From Larkinella rosea (lineage in GTDB: Bacteria; Bacteroidota; Bacteroidia; Cytophagales; Spirosomataceae), in the NCBI RefSeq assembly GCF_003858635.1, contig NZ_RQJO01000008.1, positions 372,001 to 436,000 of the forward strand: a stretch of DNA of 64,000 nt. The letters run 5' to 3'. The position numbers and the translations under genes are program-made. This document shows, piece after piece, positions 6,839 through 61,979 of the stretch. The notes under the pieces are model-generated. The model searched no databases. It had not been told where the DNA came from and worked only from the letters and a program-made list of their open reading frames with translations. The first letter of the stretch is position 1. Every line of letters starts with the position of its first letter.

Positions 6839-8017
6839 TCAACGCTCACTCTGCGCCCTTGGTAGTACGCCCGAGGGGCGTTGCTGCGGGGTGGTGGTGG
6901 GGCCCAGAATGGTGATCCGGCCGTTTTTGACCTGCATGCGGTCCATAAAGACAACGCGTTCGTCACCGGTTTTGGCGGTTCGGCCGTGGTAGACACAGAA
7001 CATTTCTTTGCCATCCGGCGAATAGGCGATGCTGTTGTGACCTGTGCCCGTTACCGAGCCACCCTGATCGACATTTTGCTGCAGGACTGGATTATTGGCC
7101 GCTTTGGTGTACGGCCCCAGGGGCGACGACGATGTGGCGTACCCAATCGCGTAATAGCGACCGCCAAAGTGATTGGCCGAATACATCATGTAATACGTAT
7201 TGCCTTTTTTAAACGTAACGGAACCCTCCGTCCAGCGACGGTTTACTTCGTGAGCCGTAACAGACCGGCTTTCCCATTCGGCCTGCTTGTCGTTGAGTTT
7301 AACGGGAGGGCGCAGCAATAAAACCGGCTGGCCGATGACACCCGAAAAATCCGGGTTGAGTTCGACGCCATACACCCAGCTTTCTTCAATCTCCTTATAC
7401 CAGCCTTTTTGCCGGGCGAAATCGGCCACTTCACTTTCGACGGCGTGTTTATAACAGCACCTTGAATAATATAAATAGGCTTTGCCGTTCGTATCAAAAA
7501 ACACGTTAGCGTCGATAATGGGATAGCCCGGATCAAAAATGGGTTGGTTGGCAAGATCGATAAACGGCCCCGTCGGCTTGTCGGCAACGGCTACTCCAAT
7601 GCGGAAATTTTCCACTTCCCGGGTCGGATTTACCTTCCACTGGGCGCTGTAGAAGAGATAAAATTTCCCTTTTACCTCATAAACTTCAGGCGCCCAGTAG
7701 GCTCCGCCCCAACTGGCTTTGGGGTCACTCCAGCCATTTTGATTGTCGTGAAAATACACCTGTCCTTCCGGTTTCCAGTTAACCATGTCTTTCGATGAAT
7801 AGGTGACAAACCCCTTCTTGGCTCCGCCACCCGTGCCGTAGAGGTAGTAAGTTCCCTGGGAGAACAACACGTAAGGGTCGCCTAACTGGACCGGCAGGGG
7901 ATTGGAAAAGGTGGTTTTGGGGGAAGCTCCACTTTGTGGATTTTGGGCGTTTAAAGAACCCACAATCAGGGATGAAACCCAAAAAACCACAAATACTAAT
8001 CGTTTCATTGAAATCAT
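6839..8017 (-). CDS. Secreted GH43-type glycoside hydrolase (five-bladed beta-propeller)
   Basis: A 392-residue exported enzyme. Residues 1-24 are a signal peptide ending in LNAQ. The mature part begins with LGDPYVLF, where the Asp is the expected GH43 general base. It continues with APEVYEV, whose Glu or nearby acid would be catalytic, and PIIDANVFFD, the pKa-modulating Asp region. Repeats of YYLYG, FYLFYSA, YLYYS and YYMMYSA are the inner propeller strands. GH43 enzymes cleave arabinan, xylan or related plant polysaccharides; linkage specificity is unknown. It is last in a minus-strand unit, 29 nt after the preceding propeller gene. Several starts are possible (ATG at 8017 or 8008); the signal peptide works with either. 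Confidence 0.82.
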   Translation of the reverse strand: MISMKRLVFVVFWVSSLIVGSLNAQNPQSGASPKTTFSNPLPVQLGDPYVLFSQGTYYLYGTGGGAKKGFVTYSSKDMVNWKPEGQVYFHDNQNGWSDPKASWGGAYWAPEVYEVKGKFYLFYSAQWKVNPTREVENFRIGVAVADKPTGPFIDLANQPIFDPGYPIIDANVFFDTNGKAYLYYSRCCYKHAVESEVADFARQKGWYKEIEESWVYGVELNPDFSGVIGQPVLLLRPPVKLNDKQAEWESRSVTAHEVNRRWTEGSVTFKKGNTYYMMYSANHFGGRYYAIGYATSSSPLGPYTKAANNPVLQQNVDQGGSVTGTGHNSIAYSPDGKEMFCVYHGRTAKTGDERVVFMDRMQVKNGRITILGPTTTPQQRPSGVLPRAQSER

Positions 8018-9157: not shown

Positions 9158-11674
9158 TCAGGATTTGCCCATGTAGGGATCGGTGATGCTTTCTTTGCCG
9201 GTTTCAACGTGGCCCGCAAACCGCTTGACGGTTTCGGTTTTCCCAACTTTCAGATTGAAATCGTACCAGCCCTGATTCTGGGAAACCGGAACCGTCGTGC
9301 GCACCTTCGCGTTGGCGGCTACCTTCAGTTCGATCGGTTTTCGCTGGTACGCGTTGTCGGTAATCTGAATGGTTTGGGCGGTATTCTCCCGGTTGTGAAT
9401 CTCAAGCTGCACATCACCGGTGGGCTTCCCGGTTTTGTCCAACACGTAGGTACAAACCGAATGAATAGGGGTGTCTTTTCCATCACCGGCAAATTCACGG
9501 AAAAAACCGTTTGGACCGTACACCCGGAGGTGGTATTTACCCCCTTCAAAATCGGCCAGATTCCAGGTATCCGAAAGGGTATCGCCCGCCCGCACCGCGT
9601 AATTCCGTACGTTCAGCGGATCATGTTGGTAGGGATTCATGGCGTAAACCAGGAACGGCGAACCGGCCGCTTTTTTGCCAAACACCTTGTTGGCAGCATT
9701 CAGGCTGATGGTAAACGTCCGGCGGTCTTCCGCCAGTTCCCCTTCCACGTACAGTTCATACGGAATCGGGCAGGACGGGCGGGTTCCCGGTTCCTGTTTG
9801 GGTAAATTCGAAGAAGCTGCCGGATTTCGATTGATCTGTGTAACCTCGTTCGCATTCAGTGCCTTAAAGTTGGCCGGAGCCGCTTTGAACTGTGCTTTGT
9901 GAATGGTGGTTACGATCTCGTCCCGGTCGACCGGTTTTGGTTTTTGGTAGGCCGTCGGATCGTACGGCTGGAAAACCGTACTGATATTCCCGCAAATCGT
10001 CCGGCGCCATTCCGTGATGTTGGTTTCCCGGACCGGTTTTTTGGCTTTATGACTCGTAAATTCTTCCAGAAACTGAATAATGGACGTATGGTCAAAAACC
10101 TGCGAATTTACTTTGCCGCCCCGCGACCAGGGCGAGGCCACCACCAGCGGCACCCGGAAACCCAGGCCAATGGCGCCTTCCCGCGCGTTGGCCTTCGGAA
10201 CCTGCGATAAATCCTGTTCCAGGGTCACGTATTCGGCTTTGACATCGATGCCCGCCGATACTTTTCCCGTATTTTCCTTTAAGGGATTGGGGATGGAAAA
10301 CGGCGGAATATGGTCGTAGTAGCCATCATTTTCGTCGTAACACAGGATAAAAATCGTCTTTTTCCAGACCTCCGGATTTTTCGTCAGAATGTCCAGCACC
10401 TCGGAGACAAACCAGGCGCCGTACCAGGGGGCGGAGGGGTGATCGGAAAAATTTTGCGGAGATGCCAGGTACGAAACCGTGGGCAACTTTCCTTCGTTGA
10501 CATCTTTCCGAAACTGGTAGAAAATATCGCTTTTCGGCACGCTAACCTTCTGCTCCACATCGCCATTCGGGTAGGAAATACTGCTCAGTTTGAGGTAATC
10601 GGGATTGTTACGGTTGGTCACAAAAGCCCGGTTATGGATGCCTTTTCCGGTGTCGGACAGTTTGTCAAAATTTCCGGCATTGTACTGAATCAGTTCGGCT
10701 TCGTATTTTTCGAGCATCGCCCGCTTGCCTTCCTGCAGTTTGGCCAGCTTATCCTTTTCGTCGCCCGTGGCTGCGGCCAGTTGCTGCTCTGATTCAGGCA
10801 ACTGCTTTTTCAACTTCTCGATTTCCAGCTGAATGAAATGCCGGTATTGTTGGGAGAATTTGACATTGTACTGCGCAAATCGCTCCAGCGGATTACAGCC
10901 AAAATTCCCCAGCCACGAACCCACCGGCGAATTGAACTGCATCACGGCGCTCACTTCGTTCTGGTAAAAAGCCCAGGAAACGCCCGCTTCCTCCAGTCGT
11001 TCCGGGAAGGATTTCCACTTAACGGGCTTGTTATACGAGAAATAGCTATTGCGCACCACCGCCAGCGAATCCATCGTGGGCTGTTCCCGGATCGTCCCCG
11101 ACCACAAATAGTAGCGGTTGGGGTGCGTGGGCGTCATCGACGAACAAAAACTCTGATCGCAAACCGTAAACGCGTCAGCAAGAGCATAATAAAACGGCAA
11201 ATCCTCCCGATCGTAATGCCCGAGCGTCAGCGGCATGTCGGCATATTCCTTATGGCCCGACCGCTTCGAGGCAAGCCATTGATCGTATTTTCCACCGTTG
11301 TAGGCATCCACCTGCGACTCCCGGGAATGCGGCAGATCGTGCATCCAGGTGGCCTTCGTATCCTTGATATTCAAATGGAACGGCGCGTACGTATCGCCTT
11401 TCGGATCGGTCTGCAACCAGACTTTATTCTTGTTGGGCAAGGTGATCGCCCGCGGATCGTTGAAACCGCGAACGCCCTGCAATTTTCCGTAGGTATGATC
11501 AAAGGAGCGGTTTTCCTGCATCAGAATCACCACATGTTCCGCGTCCAGGTAGGTGGAATTCGGAGCCGGATTAATGGCCATCGCCTTTTGAATCGATTCG
11601 GGTAACAGTCCGGCAAAACCCATACCGCCCGACAACAGGGCCGCCTTTTTGAGAAACTCTCTTCTTGAATCCAT
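9158..11674 (-). CDS. Tat-exported phosphocholine-specific phospholipase C
   Basis: An 838-residue phosphoesterase. The N-terminus has a twin-arginine signal (SRREFLKK, then a hydrophobic stretch to about residue 33), so the folded enzyme would cross the inner membrane by the Tat system. VVILMQENRSFDHTYG near residue 49 is the metal-binding signature of the acid phosphatase/phospholipase C family. CDQSFCSSMTPTHPNRYYLW and the later FILCYDENDGYYDH also match this family. The C-terminus carries two beta-sandwich domains of the kind found in bacterial PC-PLC. It hydrolyses phosphatidylcholine-type lipids to diacylglycerol and phosphocholine, probably for phosphate or carbon. It heads an operon with two glycosidase-like genes, which is an unusual pairing. 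Confidence 0.87.
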   Translation of the reverse strand: MDSRREFLKKAALLSGGMGFAGLLPESIQKAMAINPAPNSTYLDAEHVVILMQENRSFDHTYGKLQGVRGFNDPRAITLPNKNKVWLQTDPKGDTYAPFHLNIKDTKATWMHDLPHSRESQVDAYNGGKYDQWLASKRSGHKEYADMPLTLGHYDREDLPFYYALADAFTVCDQSFCSSMTPTHPNRYYLWSGTIREQPTMDSLAVVRNSYFSYNKPVKWKSFPERLEEAGVSWAFYQNEVSAVMQFNSPVGSWLGNFGCNPLERFAQYNVKFSQQYRHFIQLEIEKLKKQLPESEQQLAAATGDEKDKLAKLQEGKRAMLEKYEAELIQYNAGNFDKLSDTGKGIHNRAFVTNRNNPDYLKLSSISYPNGDVEQKVSVPKSDIFYQFRKDVNEGKLPTVSYLASPQNFSDHPSAPWYGAWFVSEVLDILTKNPEVWKKTIFILCYDENDGYYDHIPPFSIPNPLKENTGKVSAGIDVKAEYVTLEQDLSQVPKANAREGAIGLGFRVPLVVASPWSRGGKVNSQVFDHTSIIQFLEEFTSHKAKKPVRETNITEWRRTICGNISTVFQPYDPTAYQKPKPVDRDEIVTTIHKAQFKAAPANFKALNANEVTQINRNPAASSNLPKQEPGTRPSCPIPYELYVEGELAEDRRTFTISLNAANKVFGKKAAGSPFLVYAMNPYQHDPLNVRNYAVRAGDTLSDTWNLADFEGGKYHLRVYGPNGFFREFAGDGKDTPIHSVCTYVLDKTGKPTGDVQLEIHNRENTAQTIQITDNAYQRKPIELKVAANAKVRTTVPVSQNQGWYDFNLKVGKTETVKRFAGHVETGKESITDPYMGKS

Positions 11675-53616: not shown

Positions 53617-53689
53617 GCGGGAGTAGCTCAGTTGGTAGAGCGGCAGCTTCCCAAGCTGCAGGCCGCGAGTTCGAGACTCGTCTCCCGCT
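53617..53689 (+). tRNA. tRNA-Gly (CCC anticodon)
   Basis: All arms fold: acceptor GCGGGAG/CTCCCGC, D stem GCTC/GAGC, anticodon stem GCAGC/GCTGC with loop TTCCCAA (anticodon CCC), a 5-nt variable region and T stem GCGAG/CTCGT with TTCGAGA loop. The 3' CCA is not encoded. An AT-rich island begins right after it, which makes it a plausible integration site. Confidence 0.93.
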
Positions 53690-53711
53690 CTTTTCGTACT
53701 CGCTGTGACTG

Positions 53712-54343: not shown

Positions 54344-55075
54344 TTATAAAGATAATATTCTCAATTTTAAAAGATCTGCGATTACCATACAATCTTCCTT
54401 GCCCCTACCATTTAAATTCTCGTATGCATCTTTGTATAATTTTTTCAAAAAAACAGTATCATTTAAATCAACTTCATCTTGATCCTCTAAGACGTTTAAA
54501 GCTTCTATATAACCTTGTTCTACTGCCTTTCGCCTATTGATCAATGGGATACAGTTTAAGTTTAAGATATTATCTAAATCATTATCTATATTAACATTAC
54601 CGGTTGCTGATTTAATGCTTCCATCCTCAAAAGTGATAAGGTCTTCACATGAAATCTCATCCAAATATACCGGATTAATGGTTAAATCTTGCTCACCAAC
54701 TGGAAATTTTGATCTTTGTTTATCACAATGAAAATGCGCATCAGTAAGTCCACCACAGACTCCTAAAAGATTCTTATGTTCAAGTTTTTTTTGTGCCAAA
54801 AGGCCGATACATTTATGTTGTGGAAACCAATGCTCTATTGAAATATACTTCAAACGAACAGCCTCACGTACTGAAGGTATGTCATCCCCAAAATCTAACG
54901 TAACATTACAATAAGCACACAAATAACCTTGTTCACGAAGTAATTCTAGGACATACTCTGCTTTTTCAGGGTTTTGAAAATCACTGTACCTAGGAGTAAC
55001 GCCTGCTGCAATCTGTCTACTTTTAAAAATAAGTAAAGGATCAGGATCTTGATTTGGTTTTTCTATCTTTCTCAT
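54344..55075 (-). CDS. PtuB-like HNH endonuclease (TIGR02646-type)
   Basis: A 243-residue nuclease-like protein. CAYCN (C53, C56) and later C107 and C117 can hold a structural zinc. The HNH core reads EHW (His82), KNLLGVC (Asn102) and HCDKQRSK. This layout, CxxC before a distant EH and NLLGVC, is that of the TIGR02646/PtuB family, the nuclease partner of PtuA ATPases in Septu antiphage systems. It starts directly after the restored stop of the ATPase gene. The gene is AT-rich and last in the operon. That it cuts DNA is known for the family only; the target here is unknown. Confidence 0.72.
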   Translation of the reverse strand: MRKIEKPNQDPDPLLIFKSRQIAAGVTPRYSDFQNPEKAEYVLELLREQGYLCAYCNVTLDFGDDIPSVREAVRLKYISIEHWFPQHKCIGLLAQKKLEHKNLLGVCGGLTDAHFHCDKQRSKFPVGEQDLTINPVYLDEISCEDLITFEDGSIKSATGNVNIDNDLDNILNLNCIPLINRRKAVEQGYIEALNVLEDQDEVDLNDTVFLKKLYKDAYENLNGRGKEDCMVIADLLKLRILSL

Positions 55076-55164
55076 TCACAATCTAGGCTTCAAAAATTTT
55101 AACTTAGTTTCTAATCTCACTAATTCTGGGTCTGCATTTGTCTTAAGAGCACTTTTAAGTTGTT

Positions 55165-56544
55165 TTAATATTTCTTCAGCTTCATTGTATTTTTTTGATC
55201 TATTAGTGAGCCTAAATTTCTAATATTTAATGTAATTTCTTCTGGCCTTGGATCGGCATGCATATAATTAGTTAATATAGAGTTTACATCTCGACCATAA
55301 AAATTACCTGTATGAGATTGCAATTTCCCATTATCTAAAATAAACAACTCACCTTCGTCAGGATCTAAATGATTAATTACTGAAGGAGAATGAGTAGCTC
55401 CAACAAAATGACTTTGTAAATTACTAGGTATAGCTTTAAGGACTTTTGCAACATTAACTACAAAATTATCTTGCCAACTTGGATGCATGAATGCTGACGG
55501 TTCATCAAACAAAAATAATGTGCTGCCAGTACTTACAAGTTCGCACAAACCACGAATAGTTATTAGCTGTCTTTCTCCTTCAGAAAGATCTGTGTGAAAA
55601 CTCTCAACTCCATTTTTAAAACATTTTACTGATACTTTTGCTAATACACCAGCACAACTTAACGCATACAAGAAGCTAAAAAGGCGCCTTTCAGTTTGAC
55701 ACCATTCCGCTACCTCATACCATCTTTCAATGTCAAATTCAAAAACAAGCTGATCTTTTATGGGCGTAAGTCCAACAACTGCTGGTGATAAATTACTCTT
55801 TTCTCTCAATACATTCAAGAAATTAAAGATCTCTCCTGGAGCACCACCAAATTCACTATAATCATAATTTTCATTTTTACGAAACCGTTTCCTTTTGATA
55901 TATACTATAATCGTTCGGTCTTGAGGCTTATATATACCTAAATCATTATTAAAAAAAACATCTATTTGCTCGTCATATTGTAATGCAAAAAGAGAAGCCA
56001 ATAATATATCAAAATGAATATCCTTAACATACATAATTGGTAAAGGTTTTACCTTACCAAAAGCATCTTTAGAATTTTCAGAAGGATTCGCTAATTCCTT
56101 GTTGTATCGCAACTCATGTATGCGCCCTATATCAGCTAACTTCTTTGAGAAACCTGAATAATAGACAACCACGTTCGGAAAGAGTCCATCATATCCCAAT
56201 CTATCGATTACAGAATGGCTCTCATAGGAATCATTTTTAGCATATAAATTAAAACCAGTTTGATTGTAAGATGCTGTCACTTCAATTGTATTAGAATCAA
56301 TGTTTAAAAAATCGTCTTTAAATGTAATTTCATAAACAATAGTAAAATTAAAATTTGGTTCTATTGAAATCCTGTCAACAAAATACCCATATAAATTGCT
56401 GAATATTTTTGAAAGAACTTCTAAGATAGTTGTCTTACCGGACCCATTTATTCCAATTAACATACTAATTGGTTTTTCGAAATTAATCTCAAAGCCATTC
56501 AGGATCCTAAAATCTTCAATAAATAAGGACTTAATATGTAGCAT
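55165..56544 (-). CDS. PtuA-like ATPase (ABC/SMC type), apparent frameshift at its 3' end
   Basis: A 459-residue AAA/ABC-type ATPase: Walker A GINGSGKTT (31-39), signature LSEGERQ (about 320), Walker B LFLFDEPSAFMHP (343 on), H-loop GATHSPS (about 385) and GNFYGRDVNSIL near the end. This combination is that of PtuA-like ATPases of Septu. The frame stops at 55165, just after a run of seven A (55190-55196). Shifting by one base there continues DQKKYNEAEEILKQLKSA and then KTNADPELVRLETKLKFLKPR, a charged helical tail ending with TGA at 55076-55078, touching the nuclease ATG. The full gene is therefore probably 55076-56544, about 489 residues. Cause: indel, assembly error or programmed slip. Confidence 0.75.
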   Translation of the reverse strand: MLHIKSLFIEDFRILNGFEINFEKPISMLIGINGSGKTTILEVLSKIFSNLYGYFVDRISIEPNFNFTIVYEITFKDDFLNIDSNTIEVTASYNQTGFNLYAKNDSYESHSVIDRLGYDGLFPNVVVYYSGFSKKLADIGRIHELRYNKELANPSENSKDAFGKVKPLPIMYVKDIHFDILLASLFALQYDEQIDVFFNNDLGIYKPQDRTIIVYIKRKRFRKNENYDYSEFGGAPGEIFNFLNVLREKSNLSPAVVGLTPIKDQLVFEFDIERWYEVAEWCQTERRLFSFLYALSCAGVLAKVSVKCFKNGVESFHTDLSEGERQLITIRGLCELVSTGSTLFLFDEPSAFMHPSWQDNFVVNVAKVLKAIPSNLQSHFVGATHSPSVINHLDPDEGELFILDNGKLQSHTGNFYGRDVNSILTNYMHADPRPEEITLNIRNLGSLIDQKNTMKLKKY

Positions 56545-56577
56545 CGAAGTTTTTTGAAGAAATTAACATTATTATAA

Positions 56578-57918
56578 TCAAAGGAAAATAGAAGATTCGA
56601 AATCCATTATTGCATCTGTTCTTAATGCATTTACTTCTCCATATAAGGACATTATTTCATTTTTTTTCTCAAAAAAGTAATTTATCATATTTTGCTGAGA
56701 TATAATATCTGCAATTTGAATTTTGTAGTTATAAATCATTTTAGCATTTAAATTGGGTTGATTGTTACCACTAGCTAATTCACGTAATCGATTATATTCA
56801 TGCATTAAAGTAATCCATAGATAATCTGTTAGAATTAAATTTGAAGTAATGTCATGCAGAACCGCACAAGCTTGATTAGTTGCTGCATCTATGCCTAATT
56901 TTGCTGTACGGCCACGAGTTGCCCCTTGACCGTACATTGCAATTATTAAGCTACCCGCCGGATAAACCCTTGCGCTACTATTTTCCAGACCGGCCTGGGT
57001 TATACATTCATCTGTTTGAGTAATAATTTCATTAATTACTTCTGTTGTTTTTACCCATGGTATATCACCGTGTTCATAATAAGCTTTAACTCCACGGTTT
57101 GGCGTACCGCCACTTCCTATCTTACAAATGTCACCAATGCGGAAAAGCGGAAAATTTGGTTGTATAGTCCATTCACTTCTAAGACCAGCAAAATCAATAC
57201 CCCACCTATCAATGTTTTTGTATTCAGCAAAAAATAATCCTTTAAGCTGCGAATATTTATTCTTAGTAACTCCATAAAACTGATTTAAATAAGTTTCCAT
57301 TTCCATCTCAAGTTGCTTCCCCTTAGTCTCTTTATTATCAGCTTCAAATAAAGCGCTCTTATAAGATGCAACCAGACTCTTTTGAGTATCAAGTGGCGGA
57401 AGCGGAATTTTTAAATCAAGAAATAATTGCTCGTCTAATCGCTGTCGATTCGTTGTACCTGTACTGCAGCTTTGGCAAAAGGCAGTAAATTGTTTTGTTA
57501 TAGAAAGCAACCAAAAGAAATATGGGTTTGCTATAGTTTGGTCAATATCAAATGCCAAAAAATCAGCAGTAATAATTGCACCATCCAACTCTTTTGGAGC
57601 TATACCCATTGCTCCATTACGGGCATCTATTTTTGAAATTAAAAATTGCCCTTCTGAAACCAAAAACTGTCTTTTTGTACCAATATTACTACCAACCTCT
57701 TCATCGCGTAATAAAACGCCTTTACCGTTAGTACGGATAGTTATGCGTTTATATAAGGCTTCGTCCTGAATAATTATATCATTCTTAGATCGCTTCAGGA
57801 ATGTTCCGATTCGAATGAGAGAGAAGTCTGGTCGAAAAGCAAATTGGTTATCAAGAGTATACCTGACACTCCAATTAGCTAAAAAAGAGTGTGGAATAAT
57901 TTTTAAATACCGCAACAA
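56578..57918 (-). CDS. hsdS: Restriction-modification specificity subunit HsdS
   Basis: A 446-residue DNA-recognition subunit with two target-recognition domains. The first contains IGTFLKRSKNDIIIQ and FLISKIDARNGAMG and ends in LDEQLFLDLKIPLPPLDTQKSLVASYKSA, the conserved helix entry. The second begins FPLFRIGDICKIGSGGTPNRG with DIPWVKTTEV and SLIIAMYGQGATRGR, and ends in a matching distal helix. Two half-sites separated by the helical spacer are expected. It is 35 nt after the nuclease-methylase and 33 nt before the ATPase. The AT content matches the rest of the island. Confidence 0.88.
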   Translation of the reverse strand: MLRYLKIIPHSFLANWSVRYTLDNQFAFRPDFSLIRIGTFLKRSKNDIIIQDEALYKRITIRTNGKGVLLRDEEVGSNIGTKRQFLVSEGQFLISKIDARNGAMGIAPKELDGAIITADFLAFDIDQTIANPYFFWLLSITKQFTAFCQSCSTGTTNRQRLDEQLFLDLKIPLPPLDTQKSLVASYKSALFEADNKETKGKQLEMEMETYLNQFYGVTKNKYSQLKGLFFAEYKNIDRWGIDFAGLRSEWTIQPNFPLFRIGDICKIGSGGTPNRGVKAYYEHGDIPWVKTTEVINEIITQTDECITQAGLENSSARVYPAGSLIIAMYGQGATRGRTAKLGIDAATNQACAVLHDITSNLILTDYLWITLMHEYNRLRELASGNNQPNLNAKMIYNYKIQIADIISQQNMINYFFEKKNEIMSLYGEVNALRTDAIMDFESSIFL

Positions 57919-57953
57919 GTTGGTCTGTTTAGATGCGGTTTCCCCAAACAGAC

Positions 57954-60284
57954 CTACATAAAATTTTCGGTAATTATACTTTTTTTTTGGTCATTTGAAT
58001 TAACATCACTTAACGATAAATATGACATTGAGTCATCATCATTTATAAAATAATTGCCGCCCTCTCCCTTATCTTCCCAAAGTTTGTTAGACATCCTATA
58101 AGCACGGTATTCTTTCGCTACATCCAACAATTCATTATCAATTTTGGCTCCAGTACTTGAAATTCCTGCTTTCTCAACCTCTACCATAGGAACGGGATAA
58201 TTAAATCGTGTTTTGACAGAATGTTTTATCAGTTCTGCCATTTCTTCTTCAATTGCACGACGTTTCTCTCGGTATTGCTTATCTATATCTCTTAAACCAT
58301 CTTTGAACTTGTTCGCTTTTAGCTCGGCACGTTGGGTAGCATGTTCTTCTGTTACTTTAGTTAACTGTGAGTTATACATTAAATTCACTCTTTCTGTCTC
58401 TTCCTTTACAATTTGCTTATATTGAGCGTCTTCTATTTCAGTGAATTTGCGAAGAAATATTAGCGATGGTTTTACTGTAGCACCTGAGGCAATAAATACA
58501 TCTTGTGGAATACTCGTAATGTTAATTAGTTTAGCCCTACTTTCTATATATTCACGAATTTTTTGAAGAGCTGAATTATTAAGAACGCCTTCAGGTAGCA
58601 CTATCCCCATACGGCCACCAGGTTTAAGTAGATTTAGGCAGCGTTCCATAAATAGCACTTCCGTCAGACCAGAGAACTGGCCGACATCAAATAAATTAAG
58701 TAAAGGTTTATCAAGATTATTCCGTATTTGAGCCACTGCTATTTCTTCGTAATCTTCGCCATATCGTGCCTTGTATTGCTCAATTCTAGCAGTTGATGGT
58801 AAATCACTAATAGTGATATTCAATGTTTTCTCAACTCTTGCTCCAAATGGTGGGTTAGTCAGGATAATATCAAATCGACCATCATATATTCCGTTAACAT
58901 TTAGTAATCCGTCATGGTGATGCACCCCGCCATGACCGTCACCATGCATTATCATATTCATCTTAGCGGTACGAGCCATGCGTGGATTAGCATCGGTACC
59001 AAAAATGCAATTATAAGAAAGTCGACGAAGTCTCCCATTTGGATTATTTAGATCCAATTCCTCATTTAGCGACTTGAAGTGCTTTTGCACCTTTTGATCA
59101 ACTATCAACTGATCCTTTTTTGACAGCCTATCATATTCTTCTGTATAATACCTCTTCTTAACTTCTCCTTTAATAGCATGAATATGCTTTTCTATTTTAT
59201 CCCTTACATATTCAAATGCTTTAATAAGAAAACCTCCAGAACCACAACAAGGATCACAAATAGTTTCCCCTTCCTGCGGATCAAGAACTTCAGTCATATA
59301 ATTAACAATCGTACGTGGCGTGAAAAATTGTCCCAATTCTCCCCGAAATGTTCGACCTAAGAATTCCTCGAAGGCGATGCCTTTGATATCATCAGATGTA
59401 TTAGAAAGATTAAATTTTTCGAGCTCACGAACAGTTTGCAAAAATGAATTTTCACGAATCTTCAAGCTGTCATTTGGGTCGAACAAATCATCATCGATAA
59501 ATGATTTCTTAGTTTGCTCAAAGAGATGTTGGTAAAATGGCAAAGAAGTGTTAATAGTTGTATTTTCAAAAGAATCCTTCAATTTCTGAAATACTTTTTC
59601 TGAGAAAATTGCTTTTGATATACTATGTTGCCGTTCATACCGAATCTTTATAAATAATATTTTGGAGATTTCATCAAAGGCAGCTTCAGGGGATAGTTTA
59701 TCATTATTCCTAATAATATTATGACACTTAAAAAGTACTTTAGAAAATTCCTCTCTTGTGAATGCCTTAGTCTTAGTTTCGAATTCATGCAACTTCTTAG
59801 AATTACTGAAATCTTTAAATGTTGGCAATTCAACTACTTCTTCAATTACTCTAGGTGTATACTCTTTAATAACTTTAAAAAATTTGGTTTCTTTCTCATT
59901 GGTCATTACAAAGAAGTCTGCCTCTATCCAAAACGCAAAATTGGAGCCCTGAAAATAATCTTCTTCATGAATTGTAATGTTTTGGGCCTTGCACTCTACT
60001 ACAATTATTGGCTTCTTTCCTTCTTTTCTGTCTTGCTCACTTTTCCAGACAACAATATCAGCTTTAGCTTTACCTTGCCCAGGTTTAAAGTAATTTAATT
60101 CGACGTCCTGTTCGATTTGTTGTAAAGCAAACCCATACTGATTGACTAAAATCGTAATATAATTTTGCCTTACTCGTTCTAATGGATTAATAATCAACCA
60201 CTTATCTTTTAGCGGTGCAAAAATCTTATCATCTTCTATCTTGACGCTTAAAGGTGAGTCAGTATTTAATTGTTGTTTAGACAT
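57954..60284 (-). CDS. Nuclease-methylase fusion: HsdR_N-like PD-(D/E)XK domain plus N6-adenine methylase
   Basis: A 776-residue two-enzyme protein. Residues 1-150 resemble the type I restriction R-subunit N-terminal nuclease: Asp76 in KADIVVW, then Glu97 and Lys99 in IIVVECKAQ form the PD-(D/E)XK site. Residues about 165-300 are the helical HsdM N-terminal domain. The methylase follows with GELGQFFTPR, SAM-binding CDPCCGSGGF (about residue 345), catalytic NPPF (about 478) and LKPGGRMGIVLPEG. No DEAD-box translocase is present. With HsdS alone as partner, this resembles BcgI-type (type IIB/IIG) enzymes in which one chain cuts and methylates. It heads the four-gene operon. Confidence 0.8.
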   Translation of the reverse strand: MSKQQLNTDSPLSVKIEDDKIFAPLKDKWLIINPLERVRQNYITILVNQYGFALQQIEQDVELNYFKPGQGKAKADIVVWKSEQDRKEGKKPIIVVECKAQNITIHEEDYFQGSNFAFWIEADFFVMTNEKETKFFKVIKEYTPRVIEEVVELPTFKDFSNSKKLHEFETKTKAFTREEFSKVLFKCHNIIRNNDKLSPEAAFDEISKILFIKIRYERQHSISKAIFSEKVFQKLKDSFENTTINTSLPFYQHLFEQTKKSFIDDDLFDPNDSLKIRENSFLQTVRELEKFNLSNTSDDIKGIAFEEFLGRTFRGELGQFFTPRTIVNYMTEVLDPQEGETICDPCCGSGGFLIKAFEYVRDKIEKHIHAIKGEVKKRYYTEEYDRLSKKDQLIVDQKVQKHFKSLNEELDLNNPNGRLRRLSYNCIFGTDANPRMARTAKMNMIMHGDGHGGVHHHDGLLNVNGIYDGRFDIILTNPPFGARVEKTLNITISDLPSTARIEQYKARYGEDYEEIAVAQIRNNLDKPLLNLFDVGQFSGLTEVLFMERCLNLLKPGGRMGIVLPEGVLNNSALQKIREYIESRAKLINITSIPQDVFIASGATVKPSLIFLRKFTEIEDAQYKQIVKEETERVNLMYNSQLTKVTEEHATQRAELKANKFKDGLRDIDKQYREKRRAIEEEMAELIKHSVKTRFNYPVPMVEVEKAGISSTGAKIDNELLDVAKEYRAYRMSNKLWEDKGEGGNYFINDDDSMSYLSLSDVNSNDQKKSIITENFM

Positions 60285-60695: not shown

Positions 60696-60746
60696 TGACC
60701 TCCCCCCGCAAAACGAGACAAGTGATAATTAGAGATTTCCGGTGAC
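60696..60746. repeat. Left outer 51-bp terminal inverted repeat
   Basis: This 51-nt sequence starting TGACCTCCCCCCGC is an exact reverse complement of 61929-61979. A second, imperfect copy (TGAGGTCCTCCCGG ... TTTCCGGTGC) follows directly at 60747-60793 and matches the right end as an ordinary IS3 inverted repeat would. The outer copy is therefore an extra inverted copy of the right end. Confidence 0.75.
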
Positions 60747-60807
60747 TGAGGTCCTCCCGGATTTTCAGACGGTAATGATTAGAGTTTCCGGTGCTTCTTG
60801 TTGTAAG

Positions 60808-61635
60808 TTAACAAATTCTTTTGGGACCGTCGGCGGCTGCCGTTAAATCATTTAGGGCGCTATGGGGTCTGAAGTGGTTGTATTCCCATCGAAAATCCTC
60901 GATTTTTTCCTGAGCATCGGCCAGCGACAAGAACCAATTGACTGAAAGACACTCATCGCGAAACTTACCATTAAATGACTCTACATATGGGTTATCCGTG
61001 GGCTTTCCTGGCCTGGAAAAGTCCAGAGTTACTCCATTGGAATAAGCCCACAAATCCATTTCTTTCGAGATAAATTCACTGCCATTATCGCATTGAATGC
61101 GCTCAGGAAAACACCCTTCAATTAAGCAGATTCGATTCAACTCAGCAGCGACGTCAGCTCCTTTCAACGATTTGCCTAGCAGTAATCCATGACAAATCTT
61201 ACTACAATTATCGACTATAGTTAATACCCTAAATCGCTCACCGTTGAAGAGGGCATCTTGAACAAAATCCATACTCCAAACCTTATTTATTCCTTGAGTA
61301 TCCAATCGTTCTAGTCGGTGCTCTGCACTTCGGTTACGTCTGGGCCGCTTAGTCCGTAAATTCAGCCCACACGTCTTGTAGACACGGTACATACGCTTGT
61401 GATTGTCGCTGAAACCTTCTCTTCTCAACAGGATAAAAATCCGCCAGAAACCGTACCTTATCCTTGTCGTTGCAATCTCCTTCATTCGCATTGCCAACAA
61501 AGTATCGTCACGACGATGTTGCTTGTAATAATACATTGATCGAACTAACTTCACACAACGGCAAGCTCTTTGGATCGAGACTCGGTAGTTGGTCACCAGC
61601 CAATTGGCCATTTCCTTCTTGTAAGGTGGCTTCAC
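60808..61635 (-). CDS. IS3-family transposase OrfB (DDE integrase)
   Basis: A 275-residue catalytic transposase. Residues 1-100 include the HTH_21-like region (IRYGFWRIFILLRREGFSDNHKRMYRVYK). The rve core has the DDE triad: Asp in SMDFVQD, Asp in IQCDNGSEF and Glu in NPYVESFNGKFRDECL. It overlaps OrfA by 4 nt and starts with GTG. In IS3 elements the active OrfAB is made by -1 frameshifting; a run of nine A occurs just before the OrfA stop. Complete and probably functional. Confidence 0.9.
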   Translation of the reverse strand: MKPPYKKEMANWLVTNYRVSIQRACRCVKLVRSMYYYKQHRRDDTLLAMRMKEIATTRIRYGFWRIFILLRREGFSDNHKRMYRVYKTCGLNLRTKRPRRNRSAEHRLERLDTQGINKVWSMDFVQDALFNGERFRVLTIVDNCSKICHGLLLGKSLKGADVAAELNRICLIEGCFPERIQCDNGSEFISKEMDLWAYSNGVTLDFSRPGKPTDNPYVESFNGKFRDECLSVNWFLSLADAQEKIEDFRWEYNHFRPHSALNDLTAAADGPKRIC

Positions 61636-61898
61636 AACTTTTTTTTTATCACATCCTGAAGCATTTGCTTATCGAGACTTAGGTCGGCTACAAGCTTTTT
61701 GAGCTGAGCATTTTCTTCTTCCAATTGCCGCAATTTACGTAGCTCGGAGACGCCCATGCCACCGAATTTTTTCTTCCAATTAAAGAAAGTGGCTTGGGAA
61801 ACACCCAGCTGGCGGCAGATCTCTTCGACGCGTGTGCCGGTCTCTGATTGCCGCAACGCGAAAGCTATTTGCGCTTCGGTGAATTTGGTCTTTTTCAT
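61632..61898 (-). CDS. IS3-family transposase OrfA (DNA-binding subunit)
   Basis: An 88-residue protein: KFTEAQIAFALRQSETGTRV, then the HTH (EICRQLGVSQATFFNWKKKF), then a leucine-zipper-like helix (LRKLRQLEEENAQLKKLVADL). It ends at 61632 inside the OrfB start. The A9 run near the end is the expected slippery site. Confidence 0.9.
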   Translation of the reverse strand: MKKTKFTEAQIAFALRQSETGTRVEEICRQLGVSQATFFNWKKKFGGMGVSELRKLRQLEEENAQLKKLVADLSLDKQMLQDVIKKKL

Positions 61899-61928
61899 AG
61901 TGACAAATTAAGTTTTTTGACCTGTTTT

Positions 61929-61979
61929 GTCACCGGAAATCTCTAATTATCACTTGTCTCGTTTTGCGGGGGGAGGTCA
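61929..61979. repeat. Right 51-bp terminal inverted repeat of the IS3 element
   Basis: Exact complement of 60696-60746 over 51 nt, starting 31 nt upstream of the OrfA start codon. Confidence 0.8.

What the first reader, a model, noticed from the sequence alone, without database searches (positions are those of the whole stretch)
54344..60284. Four-gene operon joining a translocase-free restriction-modification core to a PtuAB-like (Septu) module
Seen: four minus-strand genes in tight order, nuclease-methylase fusion, HsdS, ABC-type ATPase with GNFYGRDVNSIL, and an HNH protein, with gaps of 35 and 33 nt and (after frame correction) 0 nt. Known: PtuA ATPase plus PtuB HNH form Septu, and BcgI-like enzymes combine cutting and methylation in one chain with a separate S subunit. 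Inference: the two modules act together, for example with methylation or site recognition gating the ATPase-nuclease pair, or the pair acting as a backup when the phage evades restriction. I know that TIGR02646-type genes often neighbour restriction genes, but not of this exact four-gene set as a characterised system.
Basis: partly seen in the sequence, partly recalled or inferred. Interest (0 to 1): 0.85.

Follow-up and report, generated by a model that had tools for sequence, protein, structure and literature searches.

The report
Restriction enzyme with attached backup nuclease
Four neighbouring bacterial genes form a unit that recurs in many related bacteria, in which a DNA-marking-and-cutting enzyme is followed by an exchangeable ATPase-nuclease pair that probably acts as a second line of defence when a virus gets past the first.

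Summary
The four genes are real and lie where stated: nuclease–N6-methylase fusion (M), HsdS (S), PtuA-like ABC ATPase, PtuB-like HNH, on a 33–35% GC island beside a tRNA-Gly. The order recurs in 24 distinct loci including the window, mostly Bacteroidota. Of 21 assessable loci found with M alone, 12 carry the ATPase–HNH pair behind S, 6 another, OLD-type ABC ATPase, and 3 neither. Cassette ATPases form a supported clade in which every sampled row is restriction-linked. ATPase and HNH vary together (Mantel 0.79), but only weakly with M (0.30 and 0.13): near-identical cores carry unrelated pairs. Best reading: a translocase-free RM core with an exchangeable abortive effector, coupled much as PrrC is to EcoprrI; the coupling is inferred. 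Against it: PtuAB-like pairs in general are mostly not RM-linked (56 of 62 matches), and the window's ATPase frame is broken near its C-terminus. Unexpected: a candidate −1 ribosomal frameshift signal joins M and S in the window and its closest relative. RM-linked ABC-ATPase/nuclease pairs are a known kind; my ten paper searches found no description of this exact unit.

The parts
57954..60284 (-). M: HSDR_N (PD-(D/E)xK) nuclease fused to N6-adenine methyltransferase
   Evidence: nuclease D76, E97, K99 and the NPPF motif conserved
57922..57966 (-). candidate -1 ribosomal frameshift signal: heptamer A_AAT_TTT (57960-57966), 5-nt spacer (last sense codon of M and first two bases of its stop), stem-loop 57922-57954
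   Evidence: the combination is shared with relative L099 only, of 27 junctions scanned
56578..57918 (-). S: HsdS specificity subunit, two Methylase_S stretches; no ATG start, -1 frame relative to M and open back into M
55165..56544 (-). PtuA-like (OLD/ABC) ATPase, 0-frame part
   Evidence: PDB PtuA 8ee4 by profile
55076..55196 (-). C-terminal stretch of the ATPase, out of frame (-1) after a 7-A run; relatives are intact here
54344..55075 (-). PtuB-like HNH nuclease, CxYC type (best PDB profile hit: retron Ec83 PtuB)
   Evidence: weak structural match to retron PtuB chains
53617..53690 (+). tRNA-Gly(CCC) at the island edge; probable integration hotspot in the genus
60696..61979 (.). IS3-type element (transposase genes 60808-61898 on -) upstream of the operon, 51-bp perfect terminal inverted repeats

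Best explanation
A two-layer anti-phage cassette. Layer one is a translocase-free RM enzyme: M carries a PD-(D/E)xK nuclease and an N6-adenine methylase, S chooses the site, host DNA is methylated and unmodified DNA is cut. Layer two is an exchangeable effector: the PtuA-like ATPase and PtuB-like HNH form a complex kept silent by, or licensed through, the M–S complex, and released when the RM enzyme is blocked, bypassed or overrun. It then cleaves a cellular nucleic acid and aborts infection. Shown at sequence level: domain content, intact catalytic motifs, conserved order, subfamily-specific linkage to RM genes, pair co-variation, and unlike pairs on conserved cores. Inferred: physical coupling, the trigger, the abortive outcome and the substrate.
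For: Conserved order with mostly overlapping or near-touching genes. M-only queries (E ≤1e-100 or ≤1e-150 in genomes, ≥50% identity in viral contigs): of 21 assessable non-self loci, 12 have the pair, 6 an OLD-type ABC ATPase, 3 neither. In a tree of 84 ATPases, a clade of 25 rows (96/82) holds all 23 cassette ATPases included and two other RM-linked ones; four OLD-type ATPases from the same core are its sister (99/93). Over 21 cassettes ATPase–HNH Mantel r is 0.79, M–ATPase 0.30, M–HNH 0.13; L100/L101 share 89% of M but 29% of ATPase and 18% of HNH. The nuclease motif of M is kept in 21 of 22 readable rows. Precedents: PrrC silenced by EcoprrI and released by Stp (PMC2610378 and PMC12707154, passages); retron Eco7 PtuAB toxic by itself and neutralised by msrmsd plus RT (PMC11555353, section 7); a Septu cleaves tRNA-Tyr (PMC13096335, passages); OLD-ABC/nuclease pairs proposed as backup effectors in BREX (PMC12839542, passages).
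Against: No experiment. Most PtuB-model pairs in the phylum sample have no recognised M–S pair upstream (56 of 62, some at contig edges), so the pair type can presumably act alone. Three of 21 M-selected cores have no ABC ATPase directly behind S. The window copy may be defective (ATPase frame). The window's HNH is of the Ec83-like type, and Ec83/Eco4 PtuAB expression lowered no tRNA, so a tRNA target is uncertain. The weak M–ATPase correlation fits modular exchange but also loose functional contact. ATPase-selected rows came from RM-linked queries, and several tree branches, the window's included, are long.
Confidence: 0.5

Rival explanations
1. The M-S complex directly recruits or activates the ATPase-HNH pair on unmodified foreign DNA, so the pair is part of the first-line restriction complex (an ATP-driven clamp with an extra nuclease) rather than a backup.
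For: Core has no translocase; the ABC ATPase could supply ATP-dependent control; tight order.
Against: M keeps its own nuclease motif in 21 of 22 readable rows; cores without an ATPase directly behind S exist (L088, L090, L212); unlike pairs sit on near-identical cores.
Confidence: 0.22
2. Two independent defence systems travel together: an RM enzyme and a Septu-like pair that share an operon but not a mechanism.
For: The pair varies largely independently of M (Mantel 0.30 and 0.13); PtuAB-like pairs without RM are common; probable mobile island.
Against: A specific ATPase clade is, as far as sampled, confined to RM genes, and the slot behind S is filled by an ABC ATPase in 18 of 21 M-selected loci.
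Confidence: 0.18
3. The window copy is a decaying relic: the ATPase frame is broken and the cassette no longer works there (compatible with any of the other readings for the relatives).
For: 0-frame stop loses about 40 C-terminal residues kept in relatives; no stable stem behind the A-run (z 0.87).
Against: Other catalytic motifs intact; a homopolymer slip may be an assembly error or phase variation; A_AAA_AAT is itself a possible slippery site.
Confidence: 0.3

Closest known systems
Septu (PtuA-PtuB) and retron type I-A PtuAB effectors
   Same: ABC ATPase followed by TIGR02646-like HNH; PADLOC PtuA/PtuB hits; solved PtuA/PtuB found by profile
   Different: Here the neighbours are M and S; the ATPase clade is separate from the other Bacteroidota PtuA-like proteins sampled; NCBIfam PtuA/PtuB cut-offs not reached
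PrrC/EcoprrI (type Ic hsd locus with a guarded tRNase)
   Same: ABC-type ATPase effector inside an RM operon; proposed logic of release on RM failure
   Different: PrrC carries ATPase motifs and its nuclease triad in one chain; here a separate HNH, and a core with no HsdR translocase
BcgI/BsaXI-type RM (type IIB)
   Same: nuclease and methylase in one chain, separate S (recalled for BcgI); RM.BsaXI 8w0p is among the PDB hits of M
   Different: extra ATPase-HNH pair; cleavage pattern unknown; top PDB hits are type I HsdM proteins
MADS (methylation-associated defence system)
   Same: MAD2, MAD3 and MAD5 models hit M, ATPase and S
   Different: scores far below cut-offs; the operon has only four genes, fewer than MADS (MADS gene set recalled)
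[quoted passage not shown]
   Same: OLD-ABC paired with HNH or TOPRIM nucleases beside modification genes (PMC12839542, passages, citing Krishnan 2020, which was not held)
   Different: here tied to a compact R-M fusion + S core with conserved order and different effector types on similar cores

Membership tests
Septu / PtuAB | PtuA-like ATPase directly followed by PtuB-like HNH | tested here: met
Septu / PtuAB | stands as a two-gene system (or with a retron RT) | tested here: not met
   cassette ATPases are RM-linked; no RT among the window's four genes
Retron Ec78 PtuA/PtuB (NF041760, NF041761) | curated score cut-offs 500 and 150 bits | tested here: not met
   74 and 71 bits
TIGR04435 restriction-system-associated ATPase | curated cut-off 300 bits | tested here: not met
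   78 bits
Type I RM | HsdR with SF2 translocase | tested here: not met
   no helicase domain in the four proteins
Type IIB / BcgI-like RM | nuclease + N6 methylase in one chain with separate S | tested here: met
   (definition recalled)
Type IIB / BcgI-like RM | cuts both sides of its site | not testable with these tools
   needs purified enzyme
MADS | MAD2/MAD3/MAD5 curated cut-offs | tested here: not met
   301 of 720, 27 of 420, 37.5 of 400 bits
PrrC-type guarded effector | effector silenced by the linked RM enzyme | not testable with these tools
   gene linkage only
-1 programmed frameshift gene pair | X_XXY_YYZ heptamer, short spacer, downstream structure, open -1 frame | tested here: met
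   window and L099; the definition is recalled; covariation support is weak with two sequences
-1 programmed frameshift gene pair | fusion product detected | not testable with these tools
   needs reporter or peptides

The most novel reading that the evidence does not exclude
A compact RM core serves as a general sensor platform with one exchangeable slot for ABC-ATPase-driven suicide nucleases (Ec83-like PtuAB, Ec78/Septu-like PtuAB, OLD-type), taking the place that the retron RT-msDNA holds in retrons. In the window's lineage a −1 ribosomal frameshift makes M and an M–S fusion from one message, setting subunit ratio and yielding nuclease, methylase and specificity in a single chain.
Probability: 0.35. 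Interest if true: 0.85.

Novelty: new variant of a known kind. Interest (0 to 1): 0.62.

Why it matters
It would show that PtuAB-type effectors are a plug-in used by unrelated sensors (retrons, BREX, RM cores), and make the 'sensing of restriction failure' idea testable outside PrrC with natural swaps: near-identical RM cores (89% M identity) carrying unrelated effectors are ready-made genetic controls. The PADLOC models score the parts separately as MTase_I, specificity and PtuAB, so the joint unit could be split up in surveys (system calling itself was not run). The frameshift candidate would be a way of setting the M:S ratio in an RM enzyme, in line with the finding that an engineered EcoKI M–S fusion needs additional M in vitro (PMC3510504, abstract and section 19).

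Tried and rejected
Retron: no reverse transcriptase among the window's four genes; rejected. MADS, TIGR04435 and retron Ec78 equivalogs: below curated cut-offs. Plasmid tblastn with the HNH: no match at E 1e-6. Structure of the window HNH gave a mid-confidence model (pLDDT 64.6); its two best PDB matches are retron PtuB chains, but at E 1.7e-3 and 3e-3, none under 1e-3. Structure of the GYTE-type HNH was too poor to use (pLDDT 50.3). Bacteroidota promoter regex gave one strict match, inside the ATPase gene, uninformative. The ATPase A-run as a programmed frameshift: no stable downstream structure and the relative L099 is in frame, so less likely than error, phase variation or decay. A viral-contig scan with the two closest M proteins found no relative. 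Viral loci with more distant M (30–44% identity, L024–L033) were left out of the M tally. Loci dropped as contig ends: G323 and G663 (M tally), L056 (ATPase tally). L048 has only a partial M and was left out of the nuclease-motif count and, with L050 (M and S fused), of the Mantel tests. Krishnan 2020 (PMC7544218) and the PtuAB structure paper (PMC12318543) are not held; they are known here only as citations in other papers. Passages of PMC10853773 held nothing on this unit. The ten paper searches listed no paper that I recognised, from titles and abstract starts, as describing this four-gene set; none searched for frameshifting in RM genes.
Full report
OBSERVATION. The window holds four minus-strand genes at 54344–60284: M (57954–60284), S (56578–57918), ATPase (55165–56544) and HNH (54344–55075). 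M has an HSDR_N_2 nuclease domain and an N6_Mtase domain; S has two Methylase_S stretches; the ATPase is of the AAA_15/AAA_21 ABC type. PADLOC models give MTase_I 1117 bits for M, PtuA 162 bits and PtuB 121 bits. No helicase domain was found in the four proteins. The genes lie on a 33–35% GC stretch, with flanks of roughly 50–54%, next to a tRNA-Gly. In three of four same-genus loci aligned here (L197, L198, L200) homology ends at or within 100 nt behind this tRNA; in the fourth (L199) the tRNA lies 11 kb further from the transporter gene; in G533 (L197) a second copy of the tRNA's 3' part lies 14 kb on. This suggests an integration site. No second tRNA 3' copy was found near the window's island.

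ATPASE FRAME. The 459-aa ATPase ends after a 7-A run. A stretch homologous to the C-termini of relatives continues in the −1 frame and ends at a TGA touching the HNH start codon. In the closest relative (L099) and the other cassettes the ATPase reaches a normal C-terminus in one frame. No stable structure follows the run. I read this as error, phase variation or recent decay; intact copies exist.

CONSERVATION. Sixteen score ≥200 bits in my profile (which was built from five cassette ATPases, two of them at these loci); L056 is at a contig edge; the other 15 all have M and S genes upstream, one of them (L060) behind a full HsdR. L057 ends before an HNH could be seen. The other 12 score at most 68 bits and are distant ABC proteins. 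M-only searches: family, 222 genomes, 8 with M at E ≤1e-100 including the window, all 8 with the full cassette; phylum, 395 genomes, 6 with M at E ≤1e-100: window, G226 and G385 full cassette, G187 and G394 with another ABC ATPase, G323 at a contig end; order, 173 genomes, 8 with M at E ≤1e-150: window, G464 (already counted), G753 full cassette, G722, G664 and G688 with another ABC ATPase, G686 with none behind S (a low-scoring ABC protein lies nearby on the other strand), G663 at a contig end; viral contigs with M ≥50% identical: 2 full, 1 with the other ATPase, 2 none. Distinct, non-self and assessable: 12 with the pair, 6 with the other ATPase, 3 with neither, of 21.

THE OTHER ATPASE. It is OLD-like. 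A TOPRIM domain passes Pfam's cut-off in L213 and is seen below it in L047, L211 and L214; L036 and L037 show none, and L089 was scanned only against PADLOC. L047 carries both kinds of ATPase.

The full cassette, duplicates removed, is seen in 24 loci including the window: 22 relatives plus L210 (L051 and L053 stand also for L022/L075/L087 and L035; L074 for L023/L091). L050 has M and S fused; L048 has only part of M. Four loci (L054, L055, L104, L210) have an extra gene or gene-like stretch for a ~150-aa protein with a Walker A-like motif between S and ATPase.

BROADER FAMILY, AGAINST THE READING. A PtuB model searched in 395 phylum genomes gave 62 matches in 45 genomes. The window and the 61 other neighbourhoods were examined: 3 have the fused M–S core, 3 a probably type I-like M–S core (L044, L173, L181), and 56 no recognised M–S pair within five ORFs upstream, several of these at contig edges or with weak methylase hits only. 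So PtuAB-like pairs in general are mostly not RM-linked. The window's own genome also has a second, free PtuAB-like pair (L170), which falls with the other pairs in the tree.

PHYLOGENY AND EXCHANGE. In a tree of 84 ATPases the 23 cassette ATPases, with two more RM-linked rows (L057, L060), form a clade of 25 (96/82). The four core-linked OLD-type ATPases included are its sister (99/93). The 52 other pairs and three type I-linked rows lie outside. Several branches are long, the window's among them (1.13), and the ATPase-selected rows were found with RM-linked queries, so the clade is partly shaped by sampling. Over 21 cassettes, ATPase and HNH identities correlate strongly (Mantel 0.79, p 0.0002), M with S 0.48, M with ATPase weakly (0.30, p 0.006), M with HNH not clearly (0.13, p 0.09). 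L100/L101: M 89%, ATPase 29%, HNH 18%. L051/L053: M 80%, S 73%, ATPase 29%, HNH 19%. Two HNH types occur: CxYC (16 of 23 cassettes, window included) and GYTE/GYSE (7 of 23). A profile of 11 of the first type hits retron Ec83 PtuB best (72.7 bits; Septu PtuB 56, Ec78 46). A profile of 4 of the second type hits retron I-A PtuB chains best (66.6 bits; Ec78 62, Septu PtuB 55, Ec83 45). Ec78 (Eco7) PtuAB depletes tRNA-Tyr while Ec83 (Eco4) PtuAB expression lowered no tRNA (PMC11555353, section 7), so the two types may hit different targets.

MOTIFS. D…E-x-K of the M nuclease is kept in 21 of 22 readable rows; L104 has Q for E and L048 is truncated. The NPPF motif (22 readable rows), Walker A and B motifs and the H and N of the HNH (23 rows) are kept; the GYTE type lacks the CxYC pair.

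M–S JUNCTION. S has no ATG in the window. In L099 there is no in-frame ATG, GTG or TTG between the M stop and the conserved RYLKII stretch; S lies in the −1 frame and is open back into M in both. One codon before the M stop both have A_AAT_TTT, then 5 nt, then a stem-loop (window −22.8 kcal/mol, z −3.7; L099 −15.1, z −1.66). Of 11 pairs, 3 changed on both sides, 1 on one side, 1 is broken in L099, 6 are unchanged; the shuffle control is weak (67 of 500 reach it), as two sequences allow little. In-frame heptamers occur at 3 of 774 codon positions in each M gene; 60-nt windows as stable occur 10 of 589 times in the window operon and 62 of 579 in L099. Of 27 M–S junctions scanned, these two alone combine a positive gap, no ATG start, the heptamer and a strong stem; L058 and L063 have an all-A heptamer next to the M stop with an open −1 frame but an ordinary ATG for S. 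I take this as a good candidate for −1 programmed frameshifting (my probability 0.6), not as shown. An engineered EcoKI M–S fusion restricts in vivo and needs additional M in vitro (PMC3510504, abstract and section 19), which such a frameshift would supply.

MECHANISM. The best-supported reading is a first-line RM enzyme whose failure releases an abortive ABC-ATPase nuclease. Shown at sequence level: parts, order, linkage, unlike pairs on like cores. Inferred: silencing, trigger, target. Precedents seen in passages or a section are PrrC/EcoprrI, retron-held PtuAB, Septu tRNA cleavage and backup OLD-ABC modules in BREX.

VERDICT. A real, recurring and, in my searches, undescribed composite of known parts: a new variant of the known kind 'RM-linked ABC-ATPase effector', with an unexpected candidate translation signal.

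Noticed in passing
window 57922-57966 (-); L099 8155-8199 (-): Candidate -1 programmed ribosomal frameshift signal joining M and S: heptamer, 5-nt spacer over the stop codon, stem-loop with three compensated pairs.
   Followed up: yes
window 57980-57988: A 9-A run on the M coding strand 23 nt before its stop codon, also an in-frame heptamer with an open -1 frame into S; possible phase variation.
   Followed up: partly
L054 8543-9004, L055 8542-8997, L104 about 7501-7959, L210 6761-7192: Extra ~150-aa gene or gene-like stretch with a Walker A-like motif between S and the ATPase in four cassettes; no Pfam hit in the three proteins tested (L054, L055, L210).
   Followed up: partly
L036, L037, L047, L089, L211, L213, L214: The same M-S core carries an OLD-type ABC ATPase in the slot behind S (TOPRIM domain above Pfam cut-off in L213 only); L047 carries both effector types.
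   Followed up: partly
G000:C11:1330685-1331191 (L170): The window's genome has a second, free-standing PtuAB-like pair.
   Followed up: partly
window 53617-53690; L197, L199: tRNA-Gly(CCC) looks like an integration hotspot in the genus, with different neighbours in different genomes; G533 has a second tRNA 3' copy 14 kb away.
   Followed up: partly
window 60696-61979: IS3-type element with 51-bp perfect terminal inverted repeats directly upstream of the operon.
   Followed up: no
L104 M gene (9300-11645, -): The nuclease glutamate of M is replaced by glutamine in this cassette, which may leave the HNH pair as the main nuclease.
   Followed up: no
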